Source of the DNA: an uncultured Marinomonas sp.
GTDB lineage: Bacteria; Pseudomonadota; Gammaproteobacteria; Pseudomonadales; Marinomonadaceae
DNA length: 59,485 nt
Reading direction: 5' to 3'
Assembly (NCBI GenBank): GCA_938009755.1
Contig: CALLIL010000097.1
Location: 1 to 59,485, forward strand
The notes under the pieces are model-generated. The model saw only the letters and a list, made by a program, of their open reading frames with translations, searched no databases and was not told the origin of the DNA. Shown here one piece after another: positions 5,480 through 16,260 of this stretch (position 1 is its first letter; each line of letters opens with the position of its first letter). Both the position numbers and the translations under genes were made by a program.

Positions 5480-6217
5480 CTATGCCATGTAATCATGAAC
5501 AACCTCACCCCAACTCAAAGTGAGGTCAGCGATAATATGTTGAGCAGAAATAACTTTCCTAACAGGTAAATCGGCCATAGGAGCAAGCGCATGATTAAAC
5601 AACTCTAATGCTCCTGGGCCTGACCACGCTTCTTTTACAACCACATCCTCCATATAATATCTCACCAACTGAGCGATCATCGGCGTGTTATCAACATCAG
5701 GAATCACTTTTAAGAGAAAGCCCGGTTCAGTCTCCATACTGCGCTGAACCTTATCTAAATCCATTGCATGCCATTTGTATGGCATCGTCGCTCTCGCTAT
5801 TTCACACTTCCCAAAGAACACCTGTCCTAACACACAATCAGAATCATACGTCAGCTCTGGCTTGGCGTATTTCTTTGGGAAGCCCCAGATTTCTCGCCCA
5901 GCAGCAATAGCAGGGAAATTATCCAAATACATCTGATGAACATATTGACCCGGCTTGCCATCATAATTCACGGGAATAACTTGACCAGACTCCGTAAAAG
6001 ACCCCAAACCGCGGAAATCATCCATCTTAATCACTTCAAATTTAACGATAGGCCTATCAAGCATCAGAGGCTCTGGCACCACTTCCTGCAATTTTTCCAT
6101 ATCCGTTTCATAAGACACAATAAAAAACTCTCTATTCACACAACGTACTTTTTCACCACTCACAACAGATGCACTTGGTGGCATAGAAATTAAACGTTTG
6201 ATTTTATCCATCTTCAT
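5480..6217 (-). CDS. Acetoacetate decarboxylase family protein
   Basis: A 245-residue cytosolic enzyme of the acetoacetate decarboxylase fold. The clostridial enzyme decarboxylates acetoacetate to acetone through a Schiff base on Lys115, activated by Lys116. Counting from ATG 6217, this protein has Lys115 and Lys116 in the motif REIWGFPKKYAKP, exactly in register, and RCVNREFF near residue 25. ATG 6217 is chosen over an upstream ATG because AAGGG precedes it and the length matches the family. No CoA-transferase or acetone genes adjoin it, so its physiological substrate is open. Confidence 0.88.
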   Translation of the reverse strand: MKMDKIKRLISMPPSASVVSGEKVRCVNREFFIVSYETDMEKLQEVVPEPLMLDRPIVKFEVIKMDDFRGLGSFTESGQVIPVNYDGKPGQYVHQMYLDNFPAIAAGREIWGFPKKYAKPELTYDSDCVLGQVFFGKCEIARATMPYKWHAMDLDKVQRSMETEPGFLLKVIPDVDNTPMIAQLVRYYMEDVVVKEAWSGPGALELFNHALAPMADLPVRKVISAQHIIADLTLSWGEVVHDYMA

Positions 6218-6236
6218 AAACAACCCTTTTCTATAT

Positions 6237-6449
6237 CTAAATATCTGCACTGTTAAAAAACTTAACTAAATCCCATATACCATTGTGCTCCATAAGACAT
6301 TGCTCTTCGGTATCAAAACCGACAAGTTTGTGGCTATCTTCCAACATCATAAAATAAGTACAACATCGAAAAAGCCACCTTTTGAAGTAAAGACGGTTGC
6401 TTTTTAAGTCGTTGGAAGTGCTGATTTCAACCCAAGGTTTTGAAACCAA
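6237..6449 (-). CDS. possible small hypothetical protein
   Basis: A 70-codon frame rich in Trp, Cys and Phe that would begin with TTG; the segment GFDTEEQCLMEHNGIW looks protein-like. There is no convincing ribosome binding site and no family I recognise. It may be a small gene, a remnant, or noise upstream of the decarboxylase gene. Confidence 0.3.
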   Translation of the reverse strand: MVSKPWVEISTSNDLKSNRLYFKRWLFRCCTYFMMLEDSHKLVGFDTEEQCLMEHNGIWDLVKFFNSADI

Positions 6450-6586: not shown

Positions 6587-8872
6587 ATGAAAAGGAAGAC
6601 TGACGTGAATTTAAGCAATCAAACAAAAGAGCATAATCGTAAGAAACCTATGATCTACATTCTCACTTTTGTCCGATCTGGTTCTACGTTATTAAAAGCA
6701 ATGATGAATAACCATCAAAAGATATTTGCACCAGCAGAGCTGCACCTATTACCTTTTGATAACCTGAATGACGCGAAACAGCAGTTTAAAGGAACCATTT
6801 TAGGTCGAGGTGTCTATGAAGCAGCTGCCAGTTTGTTGGGCTCTAAAGCTGAAGCGAAAAAAGTGTTCAAAGACTTTGAGCGAAACAACACCCCATCTAC
6901 TGAAATATACCAATGGTTTCAAGATAATTTAGATGACCAATATATGGTCGATAAATCACCATCGTATTTAATGAATCTAGATATTTTGCAACGCGCGGAA
7001 CAGATGGGCGCAGAACGAGGCTGCGAACCGATTTATATTTTCTTAAAGCGCCACCCTTTCGACTTATTTGACTCGGTGATTGATAATCAATTTGACGAAT
7101 TATTCACAACGCTGAATCACAATTATCATGAAGTTCAAAATGGAGAAGTGGAAACGGATAACTCAGACTTCTTCACCCCTTATGTCAAAACCCCTGAAAA
7201 CCCCTGCCATACCGCACTTGAAATAGCCGAAGGCTCGTATATCAACACCATGAAAAATGCGATGCTGTTTCTAGATACGATCCCGCAAGAGCGATTTATT
7301 GAGTTAAGTTATGAAGAATTAGTCTCTCGCCCTGAACAAGAACTCACACGCTTATGCGATTTCCTTCACTTACCCTTTGATGAAAATATGCTAACGCCGC
7401 ATCAAGCGGTTAACGGCCAAGCCACCTGTAAAGAACGTGTTCGTGATCCAAACTTCCATAAGCATGAAAACGTAAACACCAGCATGAAAATGAAATGGAA
7501 GAAAAACGAAGAACATTGGAACCAACAAGTACTTTCCAGCGCAACCATCGAACTATCCAACCACCTTGGCTACCAACTACCTAACGCGTATCGCTCAGCA
7601 TTAACCCCCGCCCAAGCGGTTTTTTGTAAGGAGAATCATGAGCAAACGTCTTTGTTATTAGAAATGCATTATGATCTGGTATTCGACGAGGACAAATTTG
7701 CGCTTGAAACCTTAGATCAATCAATGACGCATCTCGCGAAAATCCACCCAGCGCTACGCAGTCATTTACAAAAGCAAGATGGCCAATATTTTCAATACTT
7801 TGAAAAAGAGCTCACTGCGAATCCTATTATTTTTCATGATATCAGCAACGACAATCAAGCTGCGCAAGTTGCTCGTATAGCAACCTTCAAAAGCCAAGCT
7901 AAATCGATGATTTCATCCTCCACATCCACATTACTTTTCAGAGTGCTCGTCTGTAAAACAGCGCAAAATCACTATCACGTTGTTTATATGTTTCATCACC
8001 TTATTGTGGATGGTTGGGCGATTCAGCTGTTTCATAAAAAGCTGTGGCAGCAATATTTTATGTGGCCTGAAAAACTCATACACAAACGTAAGTTGTCGAT
8101 GGATACCGCAACGGAAATGTTCTTCTTAAAAGAGAACTATGATTTTCAGCGCTGTAAAGCTCGATGGCAGCCACTTCTCTCCAGAGCGGGTGAATGGTCA
8201 AGAAGACTGTTAGCCAATAAAGCCTTAAATACAGTCAGCACATTAAAAGAACAATGCGCTCAGGTCAGTATTGAAGCCGCACGTCCAAGTTATAATTTCC
8301 ACCCAATAACCATGGCCTTGTACCATACTATTGGCGAGCTAGATAACACTTCTGAACCTGTTTTAGTGCATCGATTTGACCGTCGTAAATTGACGAAAAA
8401 ATATAACTTTGCCGACCAATTGGGTTGGATCGCAGGCGATGCACCAATCTCGGTGAATCTCGCCAGCTCAAAAGACGAAGCAGTAAAAGAGCTCAAACAG
8501 AAGTTAAACGACCATCCACTCAAAGGGACAAGTTACGATTGGTTGTATTTGCAAGATGAGCTACCGGCTCTGCACGCCGCTTTCCCAGTGAGACTGAACT
8601 ATTACCCAATGCGTGATGTTAATGTACTGACGGGAGCGGAATTCACAGACGTAGAAATAACCTTACACCAAGACGAAAGCGCCCAGCGAGACTATATGAT
8701 CGACTTTATTGTTCGTGACTATAAATCTCATTGCATCATTTATGTACGTTATTCCTCTGCCATTATTTCGCAGCAAGAAATCACCAGCCTACTCAATAAG
8801 TGGATGGCGAATTTTGAGGCGTTAGGCATGGCTGACAAGTACACATTAACACTAGAGGAGCGCGTTAAATGA
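6587..8872 (+). CDS. Sulfotransferase fused to an NRPS-type condensation domain
   Basis: A 761-residue two-domain protein. Residues ~20-300 are a PAPS-dependent sulfotransferase: the 5'-phosphosulfate loop is RSGSTLL (Arg30-Leu36), and a typical C-terminal ELSYEELVSRPEQEL segment precedes CDFLHLPFD. Residues ~340-750 resemble an NRPS condensation domain: LTPAQ start, HPALRSHL, and the active-site motif HHLIVDGW (His470, His471, Asp475, Gly476). There is no adenylation or carrier domain. I infer that it sulfates and acylates or amidates one product. The next gene overlaps by ATGA, so they form an operon. The start is ATG 6587, or GTG 6605, which has a better GGAAG site. Confidence 0.85.
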   Translation: MKRKTDVNLSNQTKEHNRKKPMIYILTFVRSGSTLLKAMMNNHQKIFAPAELHLLPFDNLNDAKQQFKGTILGRGVYEAAASLLGSKAEAKKVFKDFERNNTPSTEIYQWFQDNLDDQYMVDKSPSYLMNLDILQRAEQMGAERGCEPIYIFLKRHPFDLFDSVIDNQFDELFTTLNHNYHEVQNGEVETDNSDFFTPYVKTPENPCHTALEIAEGSYINTMKNAMLFLDTIPQERFIELSYEELVSRPEQELTRLCDFLHLPFDENMLTPHQAVNGQATCKERVRDPNFHKHENVNTSMKMKWKKNEEHWNQQVLSSATIELSNHLGYQLPNAYRSALTPAQAVFCKENHEQTSLLLEMHYDLVFDEDKFALETLDQSMTHLAKIHPALRSHLQKQDGQYFQYFEKELTANPIIFHDISNDNQAAQVARIATFKSQAKSMISSSTSTLLFRVLVCKTAQNHYHVVYMFHHLIVDGWAIQLFHKKLWQQYFMWPEKLIHKRKLSMDTATEMFFLKENYDFQRCKARWQPLLSRAGEWSRRLLANKALNTVSTLKEQCAQVSIEAARPSYNFHPITMALYHTIGELDNTSEPVLVHRFDRRKLTKKYNFADQLGWIAGDAPISVNLASSKDEAVKELKQKLNDHPLKGTSYDWLYLQDELPALHAAFPVRLNYYPMRDVNVLTGAEFTDVEITLHQDESAQRDYMIDFIVRDYKSHCIIYVRYSSAIISQQEITSLLNKWMANFEALGMADKYTLTLEERVK

Positions 8873-9783
8873 AAAACATCACCACCCTATTTCTAGGCTA
8901 TCTCTCATACGCGTTTTATAAACTGGTAGTAAAAGTCACCAAGAAAACACGAAAAGCCGCCTTTTGGCAAAATGCAAACCAGCAACAAGAAAACAAGGAT
9001 GCCGTTTGGCATCCTTTATCTCAATGGCTAACGAATGGTAAACATAATTTGTTGGCGATGATGATGATGGGGCCTCGTTGGAACTGCAATGCCACCTTGG
9101 CCATTTCTGACATGTTTTATGTTGAAGGCAACCTTCAGCTCGATATAGAACAGGCGAATAAATCGGCTAAATTTTGGACCGCCGTTATCTATAACATGAA
9201 CTTCAAAACGATTGCTCACATGGGGAATACAGAAGAAACAGCCAAGTCTGAAGGAAAACTGTCAGTACCCAAAGGGCATTATTTTATTGCCATTCGTTAT
9301 TATGAAACGTCTCAAATAAGTGAATTTCCAGCCGTCAGCATTGATGGTAAAAGCGCGATTGCTTCTCTAAACAGTGACGAAGAAAGAGTACGTTATGAAA
9401 AGTATTTAACCATGCTATCAGGCTACCGTTCTTGGTTATTTTTAGCCATGCATTATCATGCTTACGCTTTCTTAAAAAACCGTCAAAAACTGGATGCAGA
9501 ATGGGTCAATCAAACCTATTTACCAGTGGGCAACCCAGAAACTAAGTTCACGTATGGCACGATAAAAAAAGGCCAAAAGCTCAGAGTTTCCTCATTAGAA
9601 TACCCAGCCAAACGGACTTATATTTCAATCTACAATAAAGCGAGTTTGCCAATATATTGGGCGGAGTTAACAGAGCAACAAGAAACGCCACCTATTGATA
9701 CCTCAGGGACGTTTGCCATTAGGCAAATATCGAATGCATGCTTACACAATCAATCAACCGCATTGCAAGTTGAACTGGTGTAA
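8869..9783 (+). CDS. Conserved protein of unknown function paired with the sulfotransferase-condensation fusion
   Basis: A 304-residue protein whose ATG overlaps the stop codon of the preceding gene, implying translational coupling. The first ~25 residues include a hydrophobic stretch that may anchor it to the membrane. A GPRWNCNA motif near residue 64 and a domain with AKFWTAVIYNMNF and GHYFIAIRYYE follow. This recalls cyanobacterial proteins I associate with DUF6208, remembered with low certainty. Function unknown; its location suggests a role in the same sulfated product pathway. A terminator follows 20 bases after the stop. Confidence 0.7.
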   Translation: MKNITTLFLGYLSYAFYKLVVKVTKKTRKAAFWQNANQQQENKDAVWHPLSQWLTNGKHNLLAMMMMGPRWNCNATLAISDMFYVEGNLQLDIEQANKSAKFWTAVIYNMNFKTIAHMGNTEETAKSEGKLSVPKGHYFIAIRYYETSQISEFPAVSIDGKSAIASLNSDEERVRYEKYLTMLSGYRSWLFLAMHYHAYAFLKNRQKLDAEWVNQTYLPVGNPETKFTYGTIKKGQKLRVSSLEYPAKRTYISIYNKASLPIYWAELTEQQETPPIDTSGTFAIRQISNACLHNQSTALQVELV

Positions 9784-9802: not shown

Positions 9803-9839
9803 CTGGGCTGTTAATCATTGATTAAGCAGCCCAGTTTTT
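9803..9839 (+). terminator. Rho-independent terminator of the sulfotransferase operon
   Basis: CTGGGCTG pairs with CAGCCCAG, extended inward by TTAAT/ATTAA pairing, and is followed by five T residues. Confidence 0.9.
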
Positions 9840-9874
9840 ATTACAATTCAGGCTCAGGTAAAACGGCTGGCGTA

Positions 9875-10201
9875 CTATCCAGTTTGACCTTCAACAATCG
9901 TACCTGATTTCTCCAAAGCTGAAAAAACATGAGCCATTAGCGTTTTACTCGTAGACGAAATGCTTGTGCCGCAATCCTCTTCATATCCTTCAAATACACT
10001 TTTTATATTTATTATCCCCAGATTGGTCGAGATCTCACGGTTAAGCTCCAAAGGGGCAATTGAGCGATGGGCTGTTTTTTTCTCTAGAATCTTAAGCTCT
10101 GAATGTCTTTCTAAAACGCTTAAAAACGTCTCTTCAGAAAACGGTTGATCAATATTTATCCATATAAAATCAGCGCTTAATTTTAAATATTGGCAAGTCA
10201 T
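9875..10201 (-). CDS. hypothetical protein, first gene of the cassette array
   Basis: A 108-residue soluble protein of no recognised family. It begins at ATG 10201, just inside the attC-like sequence at 10211-10299, as expected for a gene cassette. Its C-terminal ~20 codons overlap another reading frame on the same strand that continues to a stop at about 9841 and looks like the tail of a different protein. The true 3' end may therefore be a junction rather than a native terminus. Confidence 0.5.
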   Translation of the reverse strand: MTCQYLKLSADFIWINIDQPFSEETFLSVLERHSELKILEKKTAHRSIAPLELNREISTNLGIINIKSVFEGYEEDCGTSISSTSKTLMAHVFSALEKSGTIVEGQTG

Positions 10202-10210
10202 GCAGTGTGA

Positions 10211-10299
10211 ACCTAATGCTTTACTAAGCAGTAATAAAATAGCTGGCTAAAATAAGCGACGAAGGCGCAAAAGCCAACGCTTTTTGTCCTTAGTTAATA
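10211..10299 (-). repeat. attC-like recombination site
   Basis: Read on the minus strand, TTAAC near 10294 and GCATTAGG near 10212 bound an imperfect palindrome. ACTAAG pairs with CTTAGT, and GTTGGCT pairs with AGCCAGC. Its place between two minus-strand small genes and the core-like ends fit an integron attC, but the cores are weaker than at 11977 and 14519. Confidence 0.5.
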
Positions 10300-10304
10300 T
10301 TTTG

Positions 10305-10571
10305 CTATGTTGTTCGTTTACTGCGTAGTTCTTGTATTCTTTGAGCTCTGGGAGATACGTACTTTAGCCAACCACGAAAAGCATTATCTGGCGGAGACAT
10401 TTCCCATTTTGCATTACAATCCATACACAAATAAGTAAAGGTACTTTCAACCACCAATTGATTCGATTTACTTAGCTTTTTGAGCAGATCCTCAGCTTTC
10501 ACAAAATCTAATTCGGTTGTGAAGCCTCTAGAAGTATATGGTTCGATAATATTACAGGTGTGACATTTCAT
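10305..10571 (-). CDS. hypothetical small zinc-ribbon-like protein
   Basis: An 88-residue protein with two Cys pairs, CHTC at the N-terminus and CMDC in the middle, about 45 residues apart. This spacing suggests one four-cysteine zinc site. I recognise no family. The ATG at 10571 begins six bases after the core-like end of the attC-like site at 10577-10656; only a weak AGGT is present as ribosome binding site, as is common for cassette genes. Confidence 0.55.
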   Translation of the reverse strand: MKCHTCNIIEPYTSRGFTTELDFVKAEDLLKKLSKSNQLVVESTFTYLCMDCNAKWEMSPPDNAFRGWLKYVSPRAQRIQELRSKRTT

Positions 10572-10576
10572 AAAAA

Positions 10577-10656
10577 CCTAATGCCTCGTTAAGAGGCGAG
10601 CAGTAACGAGTTCAGCCCACATTTCTGTGGGCGATTTTTCATGTGCTTGTTATGTG
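10577..10656 (-). repeat. attC-like site carrying a terminator-like hairpin
   Basis: On the minus strand it runs from ACATAACAAGC (which contains the stop codon of the acetyltransferase gene) to GCATTAGG. The inner region holds a perfect hairpin, GCCCACA/TGTGGGC (10615-10632), and a second TCGTTA/TAACGA pairing. Placement of the gene stop inside the first core is the usual cassette arrangement. Confidence 0.65.
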
Positions 10657-11096
10657 CGTACTAAAGACATTGGTACGAACCTAATTCCATTGAACTCAGC
10701 TTCTGCACCTGTTGCTGAGAAACCATTACGATTGTAGAACTCAACAGCGTTCAACGATGAACGCAGACTAACTTCACGAGCATCAGTCTGATTGAGCAAA
10801 TGATTCAATAATGTACGACCTAAACCTGAACCCTGCTGTGATTTAGAAACAAATAAATGTGTTAGATAATTCCCATCGCGCAAAGCAGCAAAACCAAGAA
10901 CCTCGCCACCCGATACCACCTTAACAGATGAAAACTCCTCATTGTTAAAAGCAGTCGCTAGGTCTGGTAAAACTCTGTCCTTATACTCCTGCTTTCCCTG
11001 TTCATTAAACAATGGAAGCACATCCTTGTCTGAGACCTCTGAAACAAGCCTTGTTACTGCCTCTAAATCCGATTTTAGGACCTTCTGAATATCCAT
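10650..11096 (-). CDS. GNAT family N-acetyltransferase
   Basis: A 148-residue cytosolic acetyltransferase that would transfer acetyl from acetyl-CoA to an amine; the acceptor is unknown. The acetyl-CoA binding signature is visible as VSKSQQGSGLGRTLLNHLL (Gln/Gly-rich loop), followed by the conserved FYNRNGF near the C-terminus. ATG 11096 is chosen because GGAGG lies just before it; the frame extends further upstream but only through the attC-like site at 11110-11174. Such enzymes are frequent integron cargo. Confidence 0.88.
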   Translation of the reverse strand: MDIQKVLKSDLEAVTRLVSEVSDKDVLPLFNEQGKQEYKDRVLPDLATAFNNEEFSSVKVVSGGEVLGFAALRDGNYLTHLFVSKSQQGSGLGRTLLNHLLNQTDAREVSLRSSLNAVEFYNRNGFSATGAEAEFNGIRFVPMSLVRT

Positions 11097-11109
11097 TTTC
11101 CCTCCGAGT

Positions 11110-11174
11110 ACATAACGCTGCAATAACCGGAGCGAGGTACGAGCATCCGGTGCCGTAGGCGCGTAGTTAATTGC
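11110..11174 (-). repeat. attC site
   Basis: On the minus strand, AATTAAC near 11165 and GCGTTATGT near 11110 are the outer cores. Between them ACCGGA and TCCGGT form the stem. The 65-bp size and the position right before an acetyltransferase start fit a short attC. Confidence 0.7.
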
Positions 11175-11187
11175 CTTTTTATGTGTT

Positions 11188-11448
11188 TTACGCACGATGC
11201 ACCACCTTATGCACTGCACTTTTTATTTTATTTAGTTCGGAACCTTGTTGCTCGGAGAAAGTGGCACCGTAATTATTGTTAGCGGTATTTACGGCGTCAA
11301 GCAATAGTACCCAACCATCAGTCAGACCATTTAGGTTCGACAAGCCTTCCGAGAGCAACTCTCCTGCGGCTTCATTACCAGACGACGAAAGACTACTCTG
11401 TAGCTTTTCAATAGCCTCAAATAAATCTGTATTTGATTGAAATTCCAT
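11188..11448 (-). CDS. hypothetical small cassette protein
   Basis: An 86-residue, probably soluble and helical protein, acidic overall, with no recognised family. Its C-terminus is basic (HKVVHRA). It starts at ATG 11448 with only a weak AGAAAG upstream. It sits between the attC site at 11110-11174 and the core-like CGTTATGTG at about 11461, so it has the structure of a one-gene cassette. Confidence 0.55.
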   Translation of the reverse strand: MEFQSNTDLFEAIEKLQSSLSSSGNEAAGELLSEGLSNLNGLTDGWVLLLDAVNTANNNYGATFSEQQGSELNKIKSAVHKVVHRA

Positions 11449-11453
11449 ACTTT

Positions 11454-11612
11454 CTACTTACACATAACGAGGAAATACATTTTCCATTGGGTATTCACTT
11501 TTTCGTGGCCGCGCAGCGTGAATTTATTCATACCTTTATTGTCTGTGATCTTGCCAAACACCGGTTCGATAGCACCATAAAAAGGCCATAACGGAGTTTT
11601 TCCGTCCGCATC
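11454..11612 (-). pseudogene. C-terminal remnant of an IS1182/IS5-like DDE transposase
   Basis: The minus strand encodes a ~52-residue fragment ending in a TAG stop: DGKTPLWPFYGAIEPVFG, then NKFTLRGHEKVNTQW. The order (x)EPVFG...RFTLRG..KVN.QW is the C-terminal signature of IS1182-like transposases. No N-terminal part exists here; the fragment begins immediately after a CATAACAA core-like sequence. It is a decayed or captured piece, not a functional gene. Confidence 0.75.
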
Positions 11613-11624
11613 GATTTGTTATGC
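11461..11624 (-). repeat. attC-like boundaries enclosing the transposase remnant
   Basis: GCATAACAAATCG (minus strand, ending at 11624) contains the stop codon of the DUF6508-like gene and looks like an R'' core. CTCGTTATGTG at about 11461 looks like an R' core. The ~140 bases between are mostly transposase coding sequence rather than a clear palindrome, so this may be a site whose centre was replaced, or a cassette of its own. Confidence 0.4.
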
Positions 11625-11960
11625 ATTGCTAAGTTGCTTTAAACGTTTGATTACAGGATCTAGCATTTTTTCATTAAAAATCTTTGCCCACATACCATCA
11701 CCAAACCTTTCGGATCTTGCTGCTGCGGTCAATACCCATCTCACCTCTTTAAAAGACCCACTTTCAATAGACATCAGTATTTCTTGAATCTTAGATGGCT
11801 GATAATCGTTTGCCACCCATGGGGCTGACTGCAAGATTCTCATAAAATTTGATATTGCTTCAGGATATACTGGATAGATGTTACTCATATCAATGTTGGG
11901 TGCTTCGGAGATTGCTAATTCATAAGCTGAAATTAGGTTCGCTATATCTTCGTTATTCAT
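11619..11960 (-). CDS. DUF6508-like cassette protein
   Basis: A 113-residue soluble protein. The C-terminal half, VRWVLTAAARSERF followed by GDGMWAKIFNEKMLDPVI, resembles the conserved RG(E/D)RFC(E/D)G region of DUF6508 proteins, with Ser-Glu-Arg-Phe-Gly-Asp-Gly here. Function unknown. ATG 11960 is preferred to ATG 11975 because GGGAGA precedes it at proper distance and the upstream ATG lies in the attC core. Confidence 0.7.
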   Translation of the reverse strand: MNNEDIANLISAYELAISEAPNIDMSNIYPVYPEAISNFMRILQSAPWVANDYQPSKIQEILMSIESGSFKEVRWVLTAAARSERFGDGMWAKIFNEKMLDPVIKRLKQLSNA

Positions 11961-11976
11961 GTTCGCATCTCCCATT

Positions 11977-12092
11977 GCATAACGCCTTTATAAACTGCAC
12001 AATATGCGGAGCTAACTTGGTGTAAAATTCGCGAAGCGCAATACCAAGTTAGCGGAGTATATTGCGTCGGTTTTAATAAACTTTGTTATATT
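11977..12092 (-). repeat. attC site (clear)
   Basis: On the minus strand TATAACAAAG (12090-12081) and GGCGTTATGC (near 11978) are canonical outer cores. Inside, CGCTAACTTGGT pairs with ACCAAGTTAGC, and flanking GCAATATAC pairs imperfectly with GCATATTGTGC. The stop codon of the next cassette gene lies in the first core. This ~116-bp site is among the two best attC candidates in the window. Confidence 0.88.
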
Positions 12093-12400
12093 TCAGTTGA
12101 TGCTGAGTCACACCAAAATTCTGAATAGCAACCATCTACCCATAATTCAATTCTAATAGTTCCAAATTCTTTATTGGTATTTATTTCTCTGGAAACTATT
12201 ACTTTTTCGGCAGATAATAATTCACTAATTGATTCAATTAAATCATCAGAACCAGTTAAATCAATATGCTTACTTTCTTCATTATTTGATTCAACTTGAA
12301 ACCAAACACTTACCTTCTTATTCAACTCTAACTGATTAAATTGTAAGTCACTTATAAAATCTGGTTTTGAAAATTCTAGAAGCTTTACAAATTTGGCCAC
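12086..12400 (-). CDS. hypothetical cassette protein
   Basis: A 104-residue acidic soluble protein, no recognised family, with a beta-rich second half (TIRIELWVDGCYSEFWC). It starts with GTG at 12400, about 20 bases after the TAACATTTT end of the long repeat copy 2. Its stop codon is inside the attC site at 11977-12092. The gene is strongly AT-rich. Confidence 0.6.
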   Translation of the reverse strand: MAKFVKLLEFSKPDFISDLQFNQLELNKKVSVWFQVESNNEESKHIDLTGSDDLIESISELLSAEKVIVSREINTNKEFGTIRIELWVDGCYSEFWCDSASTEI

Positions 12401-12420
12401 AATTTTATACCTATGAAATA

Positions 12421-12822
12421 TAACATTTTATTAATGCGCATGCTCGTTTAGACACTTTTTAAACCCTTTCAGCAACTCTATAACATACTGATTATAAAGC
12501 TATTATTTGAGATATTAACCAGATCAAAAATTGACAACACAAGCGTGCGCGTTATTCCATCTTTTTATCAGGAACACACAGCGCGTTATCTCAGCACGGT
12601 GAATTCTTAATCATTGATATTATGACGATTTTTTATTCTCTACCAGTGTAGACGCGCAAAATCGAGTTATTAAAAAGGTGTAAATGAGCAAAGAATTGGC
12701 CAAATCAAACAAAAGTAATTTTCCTCACTGAAGTGCGACCTACTATTGAAGAGTTGTTGTCTAAGGTGAAAGCTGTGCTTTCTGTGTCAGATTACGGTCG
12801 TTCCTCCCTCATCGTGACCTAC
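12421..12822. repeat. Long intergenic repeat, copy 2
   Basis: Corresponds to 709-1080 over its whole length, with about 30 extra bases near 12655-12690. It keeps the GCGCATGCTCGTTT / AAGCGTGCGCGTTAT ends of the palindromic part, the GCGCGTTATCTCAGCACGG segment, the hairpin-like TCACTGAAGTGCGACCTAC and the final CTCCCTCATCGTGACCTAC. As with copy 1, it lies immediately upstream of a minus-strand gene and downstream of another. Confidence 0.8.
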
Positions 12823-12869
12823 GAGGTGAGGCGTTTGAAAGGTGGTACTCCGACGAGGAAGCCGTCTCT

Positions 12870-13244
12870 TTAATAAGAGCGATTCAATGGATGCAATTCG
12901 CCAGAATCAGGATCAATTGAGAAATACCAATCAAGAGCATTACCTTTAGATATACATACAACAGCCATTTCATAGTTCACATGTGACGCTAAATAATAAA
13001 ACCAATAGTCGCTCGGTTCTGTCACATCAAATTTAATCTCTCCATTCTCTTTTAAAGCAACCAAACGATTGGAACATGTCGCTTCACCAGACTGCGCTAA
13101 AAGTAATACCAGATTATTTTCAGGACTGTACGCTGAACAAGTAATTTTATCTTCCGTTTGAAAGGTTCCGACGACGCTGCCAATTTCCCAAGTTAGCGAA
13201 TGTAGATTTGCTGCCACTTTTCCAAAATTCCCAATCAGAGACAT
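12870..13244 (-). CDS. hypothetical cassette protein
   Basis: A 124-residue protein of unknown family, predicted soluble and beta-rich. The segments WYFSIDPDSGELHPL and LVALKENGEIKFD suggest a repeated beta-strand layout similar to SMI1/immunity-type small proteins, but this is not a firm match. ATG 13244 is preferred because an in-frame ATG at 13376 would translate the attC-like site at 13272-13322. Confidence 0.55.
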   Translation of the reverse strand: MSLIGNFGKVAANLHSLTWEIGSVVGTFQTEDKITCSAYSPENNLVLLLAQSGEATCSNRLVALKENGEIKFDVTEPSDYWFYYLASHVNYEMAVVCISKGNALDWYFSIDPDSGELHPLNRSY

Positions 13245-13271
13245 ATCTGTTCCTTTAAATTTACGAAGATG

Positions 13272-13322
13272 CGTATAACGCCTCCACAAGTCGTGAGCAG
13301 TGCAAGCATGATTTGTTGCGCC
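13272..13322 (-). repeat. attC-like site (short)
   Basis: On the minus strand GCAACAAATC and GAGGCGTTATACG, about 50 bases apart, look like the R'' and R' ends of a compact attC. The inner pairing is weak, so this could be a partial site. Confidence 0.5.
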
Positions 13323-13412
13323 TGTGTTCTTTGCAACCAATATGAACGTGTAACGAATCAGTTTAATGAGTTTCACAATTAAAGTGATTCTTTTGCAAGC
13401 CCAAATTTTGTA

Positions 13413-13453
13413 AACATTACATTTTATTAATGATCATGCACGTTATTTTCTAG
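13413..13453. repeat. Partial copy of the long repeat (left end only)
   Basis: ACATTTTATTAATGATCATGCACGTTA matches the left end of copy 2 (ACATTTTATTAATGCGCATGCTCGTT) and then diverges. Confidence 0.6.
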
Positions 13454-13576
13454 AAATAAAAAGAAGGGATTTACGAGAGTTAACCATCCGCTAGTCCCTT
13501 TGTTTTCATTCCATTAAGGCATTCATGTCGCTTGGGGTAATTGGGATTTCCAGATTAAGGCCAGAGCCAAAGAATA

Positions 13577-13607
13577 ATTGTCGAACTAAAGTTCGACCTA
13601 CGACAAT
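13577..13607. repeat. REP-like nested palindrome
   Basis: ATTGTCG and CGACAAT flank an inner hairpin TCGAACT/AGTTCGA, with CCTA on one side. The inner hairpin followed by CCTAC recurs in long repeat copies 1 (983) and 2 (12724) with different stem bases. Confidence 0.7.
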
Positions 13608-13760
13608 AAGGTTGAAAGTGGAGCGAAGCGAGGTCAAGCGCAGTCTGTTGCAATTGCACATGACAGAGGTACACTTAATTCACATCTTAGCCTCTGGTAA
13701 CTCCTCCCACAATCCGGGAAGTGACGACCCAGAGGCTTCTTACATTATAAGGATATAGAA

Positions 13761-14171
13761 ATGGCTCAAAGGACTGTAGCTATCTTTGTTGACGCTGGAT
13801 TTTTCATTCGAAATTTCACCAATATTGCAGACCCAGATATGTCTGCTGAACCACAACAATTAGCGAAAGCTATGTGGCATTATTGGATAAAGCATGTGGA
13901 CAGAAAAAATGACGAAGAATTATATCTTATCTATTTCTACGACTGCCCTCCTCTCTCTCATAAAGCACATCATCCAATAACCAATCAACTCATTGATTTC
14001 TCTAAAAGTAATATCACACAATATAAAAATGCATTGCATGAGGCACTCCTTCATCAACCTTATGTTGCTTGCAGAATGGGACAATTTCAGACTGTCAGAT
14101 TGACTGCGCTTGTTATGTTTTTTCATGAAAACCTACTTGGCAATTCATTATTGCTTGCTAAGGCCTCATAA
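13761..14171 (+). pseudogene. NYN (PIN-like) domain protein truncated by the cassette array
   Basis: Only the first ~108 residues look native: AIFVDAGFFIR carries the first conserved Asp of the NYN nuclease fold, and YFYDCPPLSHKAHHPITN and VACRMGQF follow as in full-length relatives. Those relatives are longer, with the later conserved acidic segment (the VAGDSDF region) that is missing here. From about 14095 the frame runs into attC-like sequence and the end of a cassette gene on the other strand. The start has AAGGA upstream. Likely inactive. Confidence 0.75.
14099..14118 (-). repeat. Half attC at the NYN gene junction
   Basis: On the minus strand CATAACAAGCGCAGTC follows the stop codon of the cassette gene at 14123, matching an R'' half. 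The second half is absent and NYN coding sequence takes its place. Confidence 0.55.
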
Positions 14172-14503
14172 ATTTTATCAGGGTCTGATTGACACCAATA
14201 CCTGAAAATAAGTTTGGAAGAACCTTTACCGAAAATTGAGCCAACAGTCTCTGATGTATGAACTAGAAGCTTAGGCGCCTGCCACTGTTGTGCAACGACA
14301 CCTAGATATTGTTTTGGCTCGGAGTCTATATATGCAAACCATGTAGCTTTCCCGCCTGATATTTTTGGTAAGGTGCAGACTTCTAATGCCTCTATTAAAA
14401 GCTGATAGATGCTCATTGTATCTTTTACGATTATCGCAACAACATGGGAAGACATATCATCTCCTGCATGTACGCTGTCACGGTCAATTTCTAACGTAAG
14501 CAC
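14123..14503 (-). CDS. hypothetical cassette protein
   Basis: A 126-residue soluble protein with no recognised family. It contains a Trp-rich mid-region (KATWFAYIDSE, VVAQQWQAPK) and FRYWCQSDPDKIYE near its end. GTG 14503 is chosen because AAGGAG lies five bases before it; an ATG at 14521 falls inside the attC core. Both its flanks carry attC-like cores, so it is a complete cassette inserted beside the NYN fragment. Confidence 0.6.
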   Translation of the reverse strand: MLTLEIDRDSVHAGDDMSSHVVAIIVKDTMSIYQLLIEALEVCTLPKISGGKATWFAYIDSEPKQYLGVVAQQWQAPKLLVHTSETVGSIFGKGSSKLIFRYWCQSDPDKIYEALASNNELPSRFS

Positions 14504-14518
14504 AATCTCTCCTTGAAA

Positions 14519-14617
14519 CATAACGCCGCCATAAGCGGTGAGTGACTGTTGGCTATACTGTGTAGCGAAGCGAAACGTAGCCAACTGTTACGAATCCGAC
14601 TTGATGGCCTTGTTATG
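14519..14617 (-). repeat. attC site (clear)
   Basis: On the minus strand the site runs from CATAACAAGG to GGCGTTATG. CAGTTGGCTA pairs with TAGCCAACAG across a ~20-base loop rich in GCGAAGC-type sequence. Stop and start codons of the flanking genes lie at its edges. Length (99 bp) and cores are typical. Confidence 0.9.
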
Positions 14618-15488
14618 ATTTTATTACTCTACGGTTTATAATACTGCCATCTTTATGATATGTCGTTTCAATTATTGAACCATCATCTCTTACTTCTCTG
14701 CGCCTTTTAATACTATTTTTATCACGCATAATATATTCGGGTGCAAAAGATTGTCGGGGAAAAGATCTTCTTGAACTTCTTGTTTGCCACATTTGAACAC
14801 CAGCTAAAAAAACGGCTATAAATGCAGAAACGATTGAAACAACTAAACTAGTTTGCGAGTCGGAAAGATACTCATTAACTAACTTATTTTTATTACTTAA
14901 TTCATTTGAAAGTTTATTTACATCATCCTCGACTGTAGAATAATTCCCGTTAAGCTTTACTCTAATATTTTCAAACAGATCTTTTTGACCGGATTCAAGT
15001 TTATCAAACGGGTTTGATTCAGTGTATTCCCTTATAATCAAATCCAACTTATCTAAAAATTCTATATCGGGCGTACCATCTAAGTATTGATCTGTTCTTA
15101 GTTGCTCAAGTACTTCTGAAAGTGCTATTTCGTATGGATAATATAGATTAAGGTCTGTTTTAATGGTAAATAGAATATCTCTTTTTATAGTAGTTCTATG
15201 ATCATAATGAAACTTAACAGCTCTCAATCCTGCGCCATTATTGACAAGAGTTGTAATTTCTTTTTTTACTGCTGCCTTCTCAACGTATTTATCACCCAAC
15301 AAAAAACTATTCGTTAAAAATGATACGAAAATAGTGATAAATATGACTGGGATTACTTTCCCTGTCATTTCCCAAAAAAACTGAAAAGAACCCTTTTTAC
15401 TTTCAGGAGCATTTTCATCTAAATTTTCTTGAGCATCATCCAATACACTATCTTCTGGTGCTTTTTTACTTTCATCCGTATTTGTCAT
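14613..15488 (-). CDS. hypothetical two-helix membrane protein
   Basis: A 291-residue protein: an acidic, Glu/Lys-rich N-terminus (~1-35), a membrane helix near 45-65, a long hydrophilic presumably periplasmic domain (~70-205), a second helix near 212-233, and a basic cytoplasmic tail ending in GSIIETTYHKDGSII. No family recognised. Start ATG 15488 has only weak upstream GAGAA. The long repeat copy 3 begins about 45 bases upstream. It is the largest gene of the array and very AT-rich. Confidence 0.6.
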   Translation of the reverse strand: MTNTDESKKAPEDSVLDDAQENLDENAPESKKGSFQFFWEMTGKVIPVIFITIFVSFLTNSFLLGDKYVEKAAVKKEITTLVNNGAGLRAVKFHYDHRTTIKRDILFTIKTDLNLYYPYEIALSEVLEQLRTDQYLDGTPDIEFLDKLDLIIREYTESNPFDKLESGQKDLFENIRVKLNGNYSTVEDDVNKLSNELSNKNKLVNEYLSDSQTSLVVSIVSAFIAVFLAGVQMWQTRSSRRSFPRQSFAPEYIMRDKNSIKRRREVRDDGSIIETTYHKDGSIINRRVIKS

Positions 15489-15530
15489 GCTACATTCTCA
15501 TTAATTGGTGCAGGCTTATTCAAAAAATCA

Positions 15531-15762
15531 TAACAGTTTAATAGTGCGCATGCGCGTTTACACATTTTAAAATCTTTCTAAATATCTCTACAACTAACTG
15601 AATTTTCAGTGCTTTAGAAAGATATTCACAAAATTAAAAACTGGCTAAACGAGCGTGCGCGTTATTCTTTTTATTCACAGCGCGTTATCTCTGCGCTGAA
15701 ACGTTTATTCATTGATACTAAAAGACTTTTTATTTATCTACCAGTACAAACGCGCAAAACAA
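15531..15762. repeat. Long intergenic repeat, copy 3 (palindromic part and short tail)
   Basis: It corresponds to the first ~230 bp of copies 1 and 2: TAACAGTTTAATAGTGCGC start, the CTGAA/TTCAG central hairpin, AACGAGCGTGCGCGTTATTC, CAGCGCGTTATCTC and the final CTACCAGTACAAACGCGC. The REP-like tail is missing. It again lies directly upstream of a minus-strand gene. Confidence 0.8.
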
Positions 15763-16260
15763 TGATTATTTTTTAGACAAAACGCGCAAAAATTTGGCTA
15801 CTTCAAAAATAAACTGTATATACCAACATAAAAAATAAGACTTATTCACAACCCTTTTAAAATGGTTTTATGCCGTTTTTCATATCAATTCAGACCACCG
15901 AAAGTTAGAGTCTTGGTAAAAGCTCTTTAAGTTTTACGAGATAATCAGTGCACCAATCAAAATCATTCGATTCAATCCCGATTGAACGACTCTAAGGTCT
16001 TGGCGTAACCGTGTTCGGTAAACTCTAACCTTTCCAGATAAGTCCTAAACACCTTACGTAAAACAACTCCTAGGAAATACTCAGCCTCTAAAACAACATC
16101 CCTACGCTTGTGTCTTAAAAGCGAATTTTTGGTTACTTTTTGGGCGCTAGCAAAAAGTTACCCGCCCAGCAGGGCGGAAAAATGCACCCAACTTCAAAGC
16201 GTTTAAATGGAACATAAAGTACTTTTTGATTTAAAGGTTCGCACTGCAATATACAGGCAA
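15763..16260. other. Non-coding stretch between the cassette array and cbiX
   Basis: About 500 bp with no convincing gene. Near 16125-16195 lies a sequence that translates to short stop-interrupted peptides and contains a perfect CCGCCC-AGCA-GGGCGG hairpin (16162-16177). Similar GGTTACTTTTTGG...AAAAAGTTACCCGCC sequences recur in many gammaproteobacterial genomes, by memory. The region may be a decayed boundary of the array. Confidence 0.45.

What the first reader, a model, noticed from the sequence alone, without database searches (positions are those of the whole stretch)
6587..9783. Sulfotransferase-condensation domain fusion coupled to an unknown protein: candidate new biosynthetic operon
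Seen: PAPS loop RSGSTLL and C-domain motif HHLIVDGW in one polypeptide, no adenylation or carrier domain, and a four-base overlap with the next gene, which has a terminator behind it. Known: condensation domains normally work within carrier-bearing NRPSs. Inferred: a compact two-gene pathway that makes a sulfated, amide- or ester-linked metabolite, perhaps using an acyl-carrier protein or CoA donor from elsewhere.
Basis: partly seen in the sequence, partly recalled or inferred. Interest (0 to 1): 0.8.

Follow-up and report, generated by a model that had tools for sequence, protein, structure and literature searches.

The report
Sulfotransferase–condensation fusion with olefin-synthase companion
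A rare two-gene unit, found here in two bacteria, fuses a sulfotransferase of the kind used to make terminal double bonds in cyanobacteria to a peptide-bond-type domain, and pairs it with a little-known protein that in cyanobacteria goes along with terminal-alkene synthases.

Summary
ORF 6587-8872 is a PAPS sulfotransferase (ST) fused to a condensation-superfamily (C) domain; ORF 8869-9783 overlaps it by 4 bp, belongs to a named family (DUF6208), and a strong hairpin terminator follows. The ST is of the CurM/olefin-synthase type (best solved structures 4gbm, 4gox), which sulfates a beta-hydroxyacyl carrier intermediate so that sulfate can leave and a terminal alkene forms. The C domain stands where that type has a thioesterase. 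It is the only C domain hit in the (78% complete) genome, whose only carrier hit is the AcpP of fatty-acid synthesis. One relative was found, in an Alteromonadaceae assembly: same pair (77% and 66% identical), same overlap, different flanks, strong purifying selection. DUF6208 tracks the olefin pathway: of 386 cyanobacterial genomes 13 carry it, including all 12 with a KR-ACP-ST-TE enzyme and none of the 11 in which the scored STs have other architectures. I read the pair as a self-contained chain-ending cassette acting on 3-hydroxyacyl-ACP. Whether it releases a terminal alkene (favoured) or a sulfated amide/ester is open. New variant of a known kind; the DUF6208-olefin link was not met in the paper searches named.

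The parts
6587..8872 (+). ST-C fusion gene, 761 aa
   Evidence: ORF; Pfam; 77% identical homologue L026
6647..7384 (+). CurM/OLS-type sulfotransferase domain, residues 21-266 by Pfam (homology to CurM ST runs on to about residue 335)
   Evidence: PF13469 E 2.7e-19; 4gbm 1.3e-46 and 4gox 1.4e-38; ST trees
6674..6694 (+). PAPS-loop RSGSTLL, residues 30-36
   Evidence: RSGST invariant in alignments A2 and A5
7598..8815 (+). condensation-superfamily domain, residues 338-743, where CurM/OLS proteins have a thioesterase
   Evidence: PF00668 E 2.7e-19; only condensation hit in the genome; divergent in the tree
7994..8017 (+). HHLIVDGW, the C-domain HHxxxDG motif, residues 470-477
   Evidence: invariant in L026
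8869..9783 (+). DUF6208 protein, 304 aa, N-terminal helix then beta-rich body in a low-confidence model
   Evidence: PF19713 E 1.2e-55; model pLDDT 56
8869..8872 (+). ATGA overlap of the two genes (translational coupling inferred)
   Evidence: same 4-base overlap in L026, 10001-10004
9803..9840 (+). intrinsic terminator: hairpin 9803-9834 and T-run
   Evidence: fold z -4.5; stem places

Best explanation
The pair is a self-contained chain-ending cassette that works in trans on the cell's own fatty-acid synthase. Step 1 (ST type shown by homology, reaction inferred): the ST domain takes sulfate from PAPS and puts it on the 3-hydroxyl of a 3-hydroxyacyl group on AcpP, as CurM/OLS STs do on their PKS carriers. 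Step 2 (inferred): the fused C domain, in the place of the usual thioesterase, releases the activated chain through its HHxxxDG centre. The outcome I favour is that sulfate leaves during or after release, giving a terminal alkene or an alkene-ended product; the rival outcome, sulfate kept in an amide or ester, is close behind and listed apart. Step 3 (inferred from co-occurrence): DUF6208, perhaps membrane-anchored by its N-terminal helix, is the companion shared with olefin synthases and handles either the activated intermediate or the very hydrophobic product.
For: ST best solved matches are CurM ST 1.3e-46 and OLS ST 1.4e-38. In a 21-row tree the ST lies with the 12 KR-ACP-ST-TE STs against NRPS, stand-alone and A-T-ST-TE STs (100/99), and holding it with the NRPS ST-C proteins is rejected (p-AU 0.007). 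Only carrier hit in G000 is AcpP, next to frames I name by eye as fabD, fabG and fabF; only C-domain hit in G000 and in G193 is this one; APS kinase is in both. DUF6208 in 13 of 386 cyanobacterial genomes, A2-type ST in 23 of 386; KR-ACP-ST-TE in 12, all DUF6208+; the other 11 ST genomes 0 DUF6208 (recount). In 5 of the 12 the two genes are over 200 kb apart on one contig and in 2 more on different contigs, so close linkage does not explain it (places). DUF6208+ genome G254 has an ST identical to 4gox at 282 of 291 positions, my count of the printed alignment.
Against: I know of no C domain that ends a chain with loss of CO2 and sulfate; CurM-type release needs a TE, and none is in the pair. 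ST followed by C also occurs inside NRPSs: L095-L098 in cyanobacteria and G1301 (L154) in a gammaproteobacterium, where sulfate is presumably kept. In the first ST tree the PKS grouping had only 89/66, and long branches meet in the second. G353 has DUF6208 but no ST hit. G000 is 78% complete, so a carrier or PKS could be missing; G193 has three small carrier frames, two of them side by side and of unknown use. At most 5-6 candidates per genome were scored. No activity was tested.
Confidence: 0.45

Rival explanations
1. Sulfate is kept: the ST sulfates 3-hydroxyacyl-ACP and the C domain joins the acyl group to an amine or alcohol, giving a sulfated acyl amide or ester. It would work like the mycobacterial sulfolipid route, in which a sulfotransferase and PapA acyltransferases act in turn (recalled).
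For: HHxxxDG is intact and the same in both copies; ST followed directly by C occurs inside NRPSs (L095-L098 and L154); C-superfamily acyltransferases that use free donors are known (PapA, recalled). A sulfatase gene lies convergent beside the Alteromonadaceae pair.
Against: DUF6208 is absent from all 4 cyanobacterial genomes with NRPS-type ST-C proteins and present in all 12 with KR-ACP-ST-TE; the ST does not group with the NRPS ST-C type (p-AU 0.007); no acceptor-making gene in the two-gene unit.
Confidence: 0.33
2. The C domain catalyses beta-elimination or ring closure on the sulfated thioester (for example an enoyl or a beta-lactone product) rather than acyl transfer.
For: The domain sits weakly beside epimerization domains, which deprotonate the alpha carbon (73/50), and its best-scoring stretch in bacitracin synthase 3 is one with an E-type HHLVVDGISW motif; C domains that dehydrate or form beta-lactams are known (recalled).
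Against: The E-type EGHGRE stretch is missing; a profile of 44 C domains scores it higher (80 bits) than one of 9 E domains (45 bits); FabA/FabZ dehydrate 3-hydroxyacyl-ACP without sulfation (recalled).
Confidence: 0.12
3. The pair is the tail of a larger PKS/NRPS pathway encoded elsewhere and missing from the incomplete assembly.
For: G000 is 77.9% complete in 122 contigs; several relatives of the same genus carry large NRPS-like frames with condensation hits.
Against: In the second genome, G193 (4.7 Mb, completeness not told), there is likewise no other C-domain hit and only three small carrier frames; in the stretches compared the two copies share no flanking genes beyond chemotaxis receptors.
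Confidence: 0.1

Closest known systems
CurM ST (curacin A) and OLS ST (olefin synthase, Synechococcus PCC 7002); domain unit ST-TE
   Same: Same ST type by sequence; PAPS loop, DPNF-KH and the K-K of the KWK stretch shared; DUF6208 companion in the genomes that have KR-ACP-ST-TE.
   Different: C domain instead of TE; no FAAL, KS, AT, KR or ACP in the protein or in the gene beside it.
NRPSs with T-ST-C-A-T order (L095-L098, unnamed cyanobacterial genomes; L154 of G1301 similar)
   Same: ST followed at once by a C domain.
   Different: Window ST held with the L095-L098 STs is rejected (p-AU 0.007); their C domains group apart (L095, L096, L098, L154); none of the four cyanobacterial genomes has DUF6208.
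DUF6208 (PF19713)
   Same: Member by curated score (189 bits, cut-off 25).
   Different: Other members met here are cyanobacterial, save the one beside the Alteromonadaceae fusion; searched: 192 relatives, 394 genomes of G193's order, a narrow pattern scan of genome contigs, plasmids.
DUF1254/DUF1214 proteins (VPA0735 and kin; that the PDB entries belong there is recalled)
   Same: Low-confidence model of DUF6208 ranks them first (Foldseek 9.2e-7 to 6ans; Z 8.0 over 240 residues to 3vb9); two ST-TE PKSs of a gammaproteobacterium (G1166) are each followed at once by a DUF1254/1214-type gene.
   Different: Profile-profile comparison of DUF6208 with such proteins is not significant (E 0.05).
Mycobacterial sulfolipid enzymes Stf0 + PapA (recalled; papers seen in listing only)
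   Same: Sulfation plus C-superfamily acyl transfer on a lipid.
   Different: Separate proteins; the Stf0 Pfam family is not among the hits of this ST at E<=1.

Membership tests
CurM/OLS-type sulfotransferase | Sequence homology to CurM/OLS ST over the whole domain | tested here: met
   4gbm 1.3e-46, 4gox 1.4e-38; two aligned pieces, profile positions 20-178 and 216-338, round an insertion
CurM/OLS-type sulfotransferase | Groups with KR-ACP-ST-TE STs rather than other STs | tested here: met
   100/99 (21 rows, 3 long rows dropped, long-branch warning); only 89/66 (24 rows)
CurM/OLS-type sulfotransferase | Sulfates a beta-hydroxyacyl-ACP | not testable with these tools
   needs enzyme assay
Olefin synthase pathway (OLS) | FAAL-ACP-KS-AT-KR-ACP-ST-TE in one or two proteins | tested here: not met
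   window protein holds ST and C only; one carrier hit in the (78% complete) genome, AcpP
Olefin synthase pathway (OLS) | ST followed by a decarboxylating thioesterase | tested here: not met
   no TE domain
NRPS condensation superfamily (PF00668) | Profile match over the curated cut-off | tested here: met
   69.6 bits, cut-off 30.6
NRPS condensation superfamily (PF00668) | HHxxxDG motif | tested here: met
   HHLIVDG, residues 470-476
NRPS elongation module | C next to A and T domains | tested here: not met
NRPS epimerization (E) domain | EGHGRE stretch as in the nine E domains aligned | tested here: not met
   absent in window and L026
NRPS epimerization (E) domain | Falls in the E clade | tested here: inconclusive
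   beside, not inside, the 9 E domains, support 73/50
DUF6208 | Profile match over the curated cut-off | tested here: met
   189 bits, cut-off 25
DUF1254/DUF1214 fold | Same fold / profile similarity | tested here: inconclusive
   searches suggest it on a pLDDT 56 model; profile comparison E 0.05
Stf0-type sulfotransferase | Match to the Stf0 Pfam family | tested here: not met
   one search lists three families at E<=1, not Stf0's (family name recalled)

The most novel reading that the evidence does not exclude
A PKS-free, two-gene route to terminal alkenes (or alkene-ended lipids) straight from fatty-acid-synthase 3-hydroxyacyl-ACP, in which a condensation-type domain has replaced the decarboxylating thioesterase and DUF6208 is a dedicated protein of sulfate-activated olefin formation in cyanobacteria and proteobacteria.
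Probability: 0.3. Interest if true: 0.82.

Novelty: new variant of a known kind. Interest (0 to 1): 0.6.

Why it matters
If right, it shows how the sulfate-activation trick of curacin and olefin synthases can be cut loose from a PKS of some 2,000-3,000 residues and run on ordinary fatty-acid intermediates, in a unit of 3.2 kb. It also gives DUF6208, a family that no paper of the library names, a sharp and cheap test: a knock-out in an OLS cyanobacterium followed by GC-MS of 1-alkenes.

Tried and rejected
Other members: neither the fusion nor DUF6208 was found in near kin (93 relatives searched with the protein, 19 gave partial hits, mostly to condensation stretches of large frames; DUF6208 in 0 of 192 relatives). 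Class of G193, 369 genomes at E<=1e-10: 9 with a match, only G193 with the stand-alone two-domain fusion; the other 8 have CurM-like STs in PKS/NRPS-type or small proteins, a more distant ST (G1053) or a condensation hit only (G1203). G1301 has an NRPS in which a C motif follows the ST. G1089 and G1203 were not fetched further. Order of G193: 2 of 394 match DUF6208, G193 itself and one below the cut-off with two stops inside. Viral contigs: nothing for either protein by pattern scan. Plasmids: DUF6208 on two cyanobacterial plasmids, and no record covering 80% of the fusion. The genome-contig scan used only two short patterns and missed DUF6208 carriers that one search found, so rarity is a lower bound on spread.

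Structure of the fusion: the model failed (mean pLDDT 45.6, C part mostly 22-45) and was not used. The DUF6208 model is weak (56), so its fold matches are leads only; the profile test against DUF1254/1214 proteins was not significant. Three earlier attempts at that test failed for technical reasons.

Idea that the fusion came from an NRPS ST-C pair: rejected for the ST part (p-AU 0.007; the group was named after the first tree had been seen) and not supported for the C part. Idea that the C domain is an epimerase: stretch missing.

Literature: no paper in the library holds 'DUF6208'. Searches on ST/condensation/PAPS, olefin synthase, CurM, gammaproteobacterial olefins and olefin accessory proteins were seen as listings; passages were read in PMC3903477, PMC6361979, PMC6274090 and PMC8661006. 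None of what I saw links a DUF6208-like protein to olefin synthesis. Searches (DUF1214/DUF1254; sulfolipid) were listings too. Most subscription papers are not in the library; what I say of the CurM/OLS mechanism is from the passages of PMC3903477 and PMC6274090 or recalled.

Limits of the co-occurrence test: it ignores relatedness (G254 and G279 look like near kin), so the p value (6.8e-22 for KR-ACP-ST-TE, 8.9e-16 for any scored ST) is too small; the ST profile A2 holds two PKS STs and so leans to that type; only 5-6 candidates per genome were scored. For G266, G407 and G279 only 1.5 kb on each side of the ST was read (L066, L068, L071). Three STs were dropped from the second ST tree for long branches.
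Full report
WHAT IS THERE. ORF 6587-8872 codes for 761 residues: a Sulfotransfer_3 domain (21-266, E 2.7e-19) and a Condensation domain (338-743, E 2.7e-19), with nothing else in Pfam at E<=1 beyond a second sulfotransferase model. ORF 8869-9783 overlaps it by ATGA and is DUF6208 (E 1.2e-55). A hairpin terminator at 9803-9834 with a T-run follows (-18.9 kcal/mol, z -4.5). Upstream, on the other strand, is an acetoacetate-decarboxylase-type gene (5480-6250), and before that focA.

WHAT KIND OF SULFOTRANSFERASE. Against all PDB chains the ST part matches CurM ST (4gbm, 1.3e-46) and the OLS ST (4gox, 1.4e-38) far ahead of anything else (next 3.1e-5). These act on a beta-hydroxyacyl chain on a carrier; [quoted passage not shown] PMC6274090, passages). 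A tree of 24 STs put the window's ST with the KR-ACP-ST-TE type at only 89/66; without three long rows the same split has 100/99, and putting it with the ST of NRPS T-ST-C-A-T proteins is rejected (p-AU 0.007), though the program warns that long branches meet. The ST of the two ST-C proteins is very divergent (branch about 3 changes per column).

WHAT KIND OF CONDENSATION DOMAIN. HHLIVDGW is intact. In a tree with 44 C and 9 E domains cut from NRPSs in fetched loci, the window's domain and its relative form a long branch beside the E domains with weak support (73/50); a profile of the C domains scores it at 80 bits and one of the E domains at 45. The EGHGRE stretch of the E domains is not there. 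It is thus a divergent member of the superfamily, not an ordinary elongation domain and, by motif, not a working epimerase. The C domains behind the ST in L095, L096, L098 and L154 group elsewhere.

NO ASSEMBLY LINE FOUND. In the window's genome the condensation profile hits this gene alone and the carrier profile hits one 77-residue protein, which lies between frames that I name by eye as fabG and fabF, next to a fabD-like frame; hence AcpP. In the second genome, G193, the condensation profile again hits only the fusion and the carrier profile three small frames of 86-101 residues, two of them side by side; which of them is AcpP was not checked. APS kinase, for PAPS, is in both. So the donor that is surely at hand is 3-hydroxyacyl-AcpP, which is also the natural analogue of the CurM/OLS substrate. 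That AcpP is the donor is an inference, and the incompleteness of the assembly leaves room for error.

ONE RELATIVE, SAME UNIT. A pattern scan of the genome-contig collection with a DUF6208 alignment gave 4 loci: three cyanobacteria and an uncultured Alteromonadaceae (Gammaproteobacteria). The latter (L026) carries the ST-C fusion (77% identical) and DUF6208 (66%) with the same 4-base overlap. The stretches of its contig that I held share no gene with the window but chemotaxis receptors. Synonymous differences are saturated while pN is 0.13 (ST), 0.17 (C) and 0.21 (DUF6208): all three parts are under selection. Of 93 relatives of the window's genome none has the fusion, and of 192 none has DUF6208. 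A two-gene unit that moves alone is the simplest reading.

DUF6208 TRACKS THE OLEFIN PATHWAY. On two cyanobacterial plasmids DUF6208 follows directly after PKS proteins ending KR-ACP-ST-TE. In 386 cyanobacterial genomes drawn evenly from the phylum, DUF6208 is in 13 (0 of 14 control genomes) and an ST of this kind (E<=1e-20) in 23. Reading the architectures: 12 of the 23 have KR-ACP-ST-TE (G194, G196, G252, G254, G266, G279, G327, G341, G383, G407, G458, G555), and all 12 have DUF6208; the other 11 (four NRPS T-ST-C-A-T: G215, G238, G291, G447; one A-T-ST-TE: G339; six with STs in small frames of 318-467 residues: G385, G466, G501, G507, G523, G577) have none. G353 has DUF6208 beside PKS modules but no ST hit. 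In G252, G254, G279, G341 and G383 the two genes are more than 200 kb apart on one contig, in G266 and G407 on different contigs, so the association is not mere neighbourhood. The Fisher p of 6.8e-22 takes no account of kinship, and at most 5-6 candidates per genome were scored. G254's ST is identical to the solved OLS ST 4gox at 282 of 291 positions (my count), so DUF6208 occurs in near kin of the strain in which OLS was shown to work (that 4gox is from PCC 7002 is recalled). No paper in the library holds 'DUF6208'.

A HINT ON THE FOLD OF DUF6208. A five-sequence model (pLDDT 56) ranks DUF1254/DUF1214 proteins first (6ans 9.2e-7; 3vb9 Z 8.0, 240 residues, rmsd 6.7; that these entries are DUF1254/1214 proteins is recalled). 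A Z of 8 is not decisive by the tool's own note, and a profile-profile test is not significant (E 0.05). But in a genome of G193's class, G1166, two PKSs ending KR-ACP-ST-TE are each followed at once by a gene that does match DUF1254/1214 proteins (hhalign E 1.9e-16 for the two together; Pfam DUF1254 E 0.0017 for one of the two, under its cut-off; loci L152, L153). So a companion of this general look may sit beside ST-TE enzymes more widely. This is a lead.

MECHANISM. Shown: the two domains, their intact motifs, the type of the ST, the lack of other C domains and of modular carriers in what is assembled, the conserved two-gene unit, the DUF6208 association. Inferred: sulfation of 3-hydroxyacyl-AcpP; release by the C domain; a role of DUF6208 with the activated chain or the product. 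For the outcome I lean to loss of sulfate and a terminal alkene, because DUF6208 goes with that chemistry and not with the STs of cyanobacterial NRPSs, at about 0.45; the rival with sulfate kept in an amide or ester stands at about 0.33.

VERDICT. Real, rare in what was searched, conserved, and not described under these names in the papers searched. A new variant built from known parts. The most useful by-product is a direct test of DUF6208 in olefin-synthase cyanobacteria.

Noticed in passing
window 9875-15790: Mostly minus-strand small ORFs with short repeated ends (direct repeats at 10210/10575, 12416/13412/15526, 12420-12661 against 15530-15759, 11110/14518) and low GC (37.6% against 42.4%): looks like an integron-type cassette array; no integrase or attC test was made.
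   Followed up: partly
L152 3119-10470 and L153 5743-13868 (G1166): PKSs ending KR-ACP-ST-TE in a genome of G193's class, each followed at once by a DUF1254/DUF1214-type gene.
   Followed up: partly
L095, L096, L097, L098 (four unnamed cyanobacterial genomes); L154 4135-12603 (G1301): NRPS proteins in which a C domain follows an ST inside the assembly line, T-ST-C-A-T in the first four; L095's starts with an FkbM methyltransferase.
   Followed up: partly
L024 8042-11689 (Agrobacterium vitis plasmid NZ_AP023281.1): A-T-ST-TE protein near cysN/cysD, ectB and transporters: a small ST-using pathway with what may be its own sulfate activation.
   Followed up: no
L026 4134-5597 and 11010-12572: A FadL/TodX-type outer-membrane protein upstream and a sulfatase convergent and just downstream of the Alteromonadaceae ST-C/DUF6208 pair; link to the pair unknown.
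   Followed up: partly
L148 8565-9980 (G998) and L150 8317-9588 (G1113): Small proteins with a carrier-like stretch before a CurM-like ST.
   Followed up: no
L056 and L109 (G353:C56 126000-165604): DUF6208 next to PKS modules like those of G458 but with no ST-TE module on the stretches read nor an ST hit: a possible decayed or split olefin cluster.
   Followed up: partly
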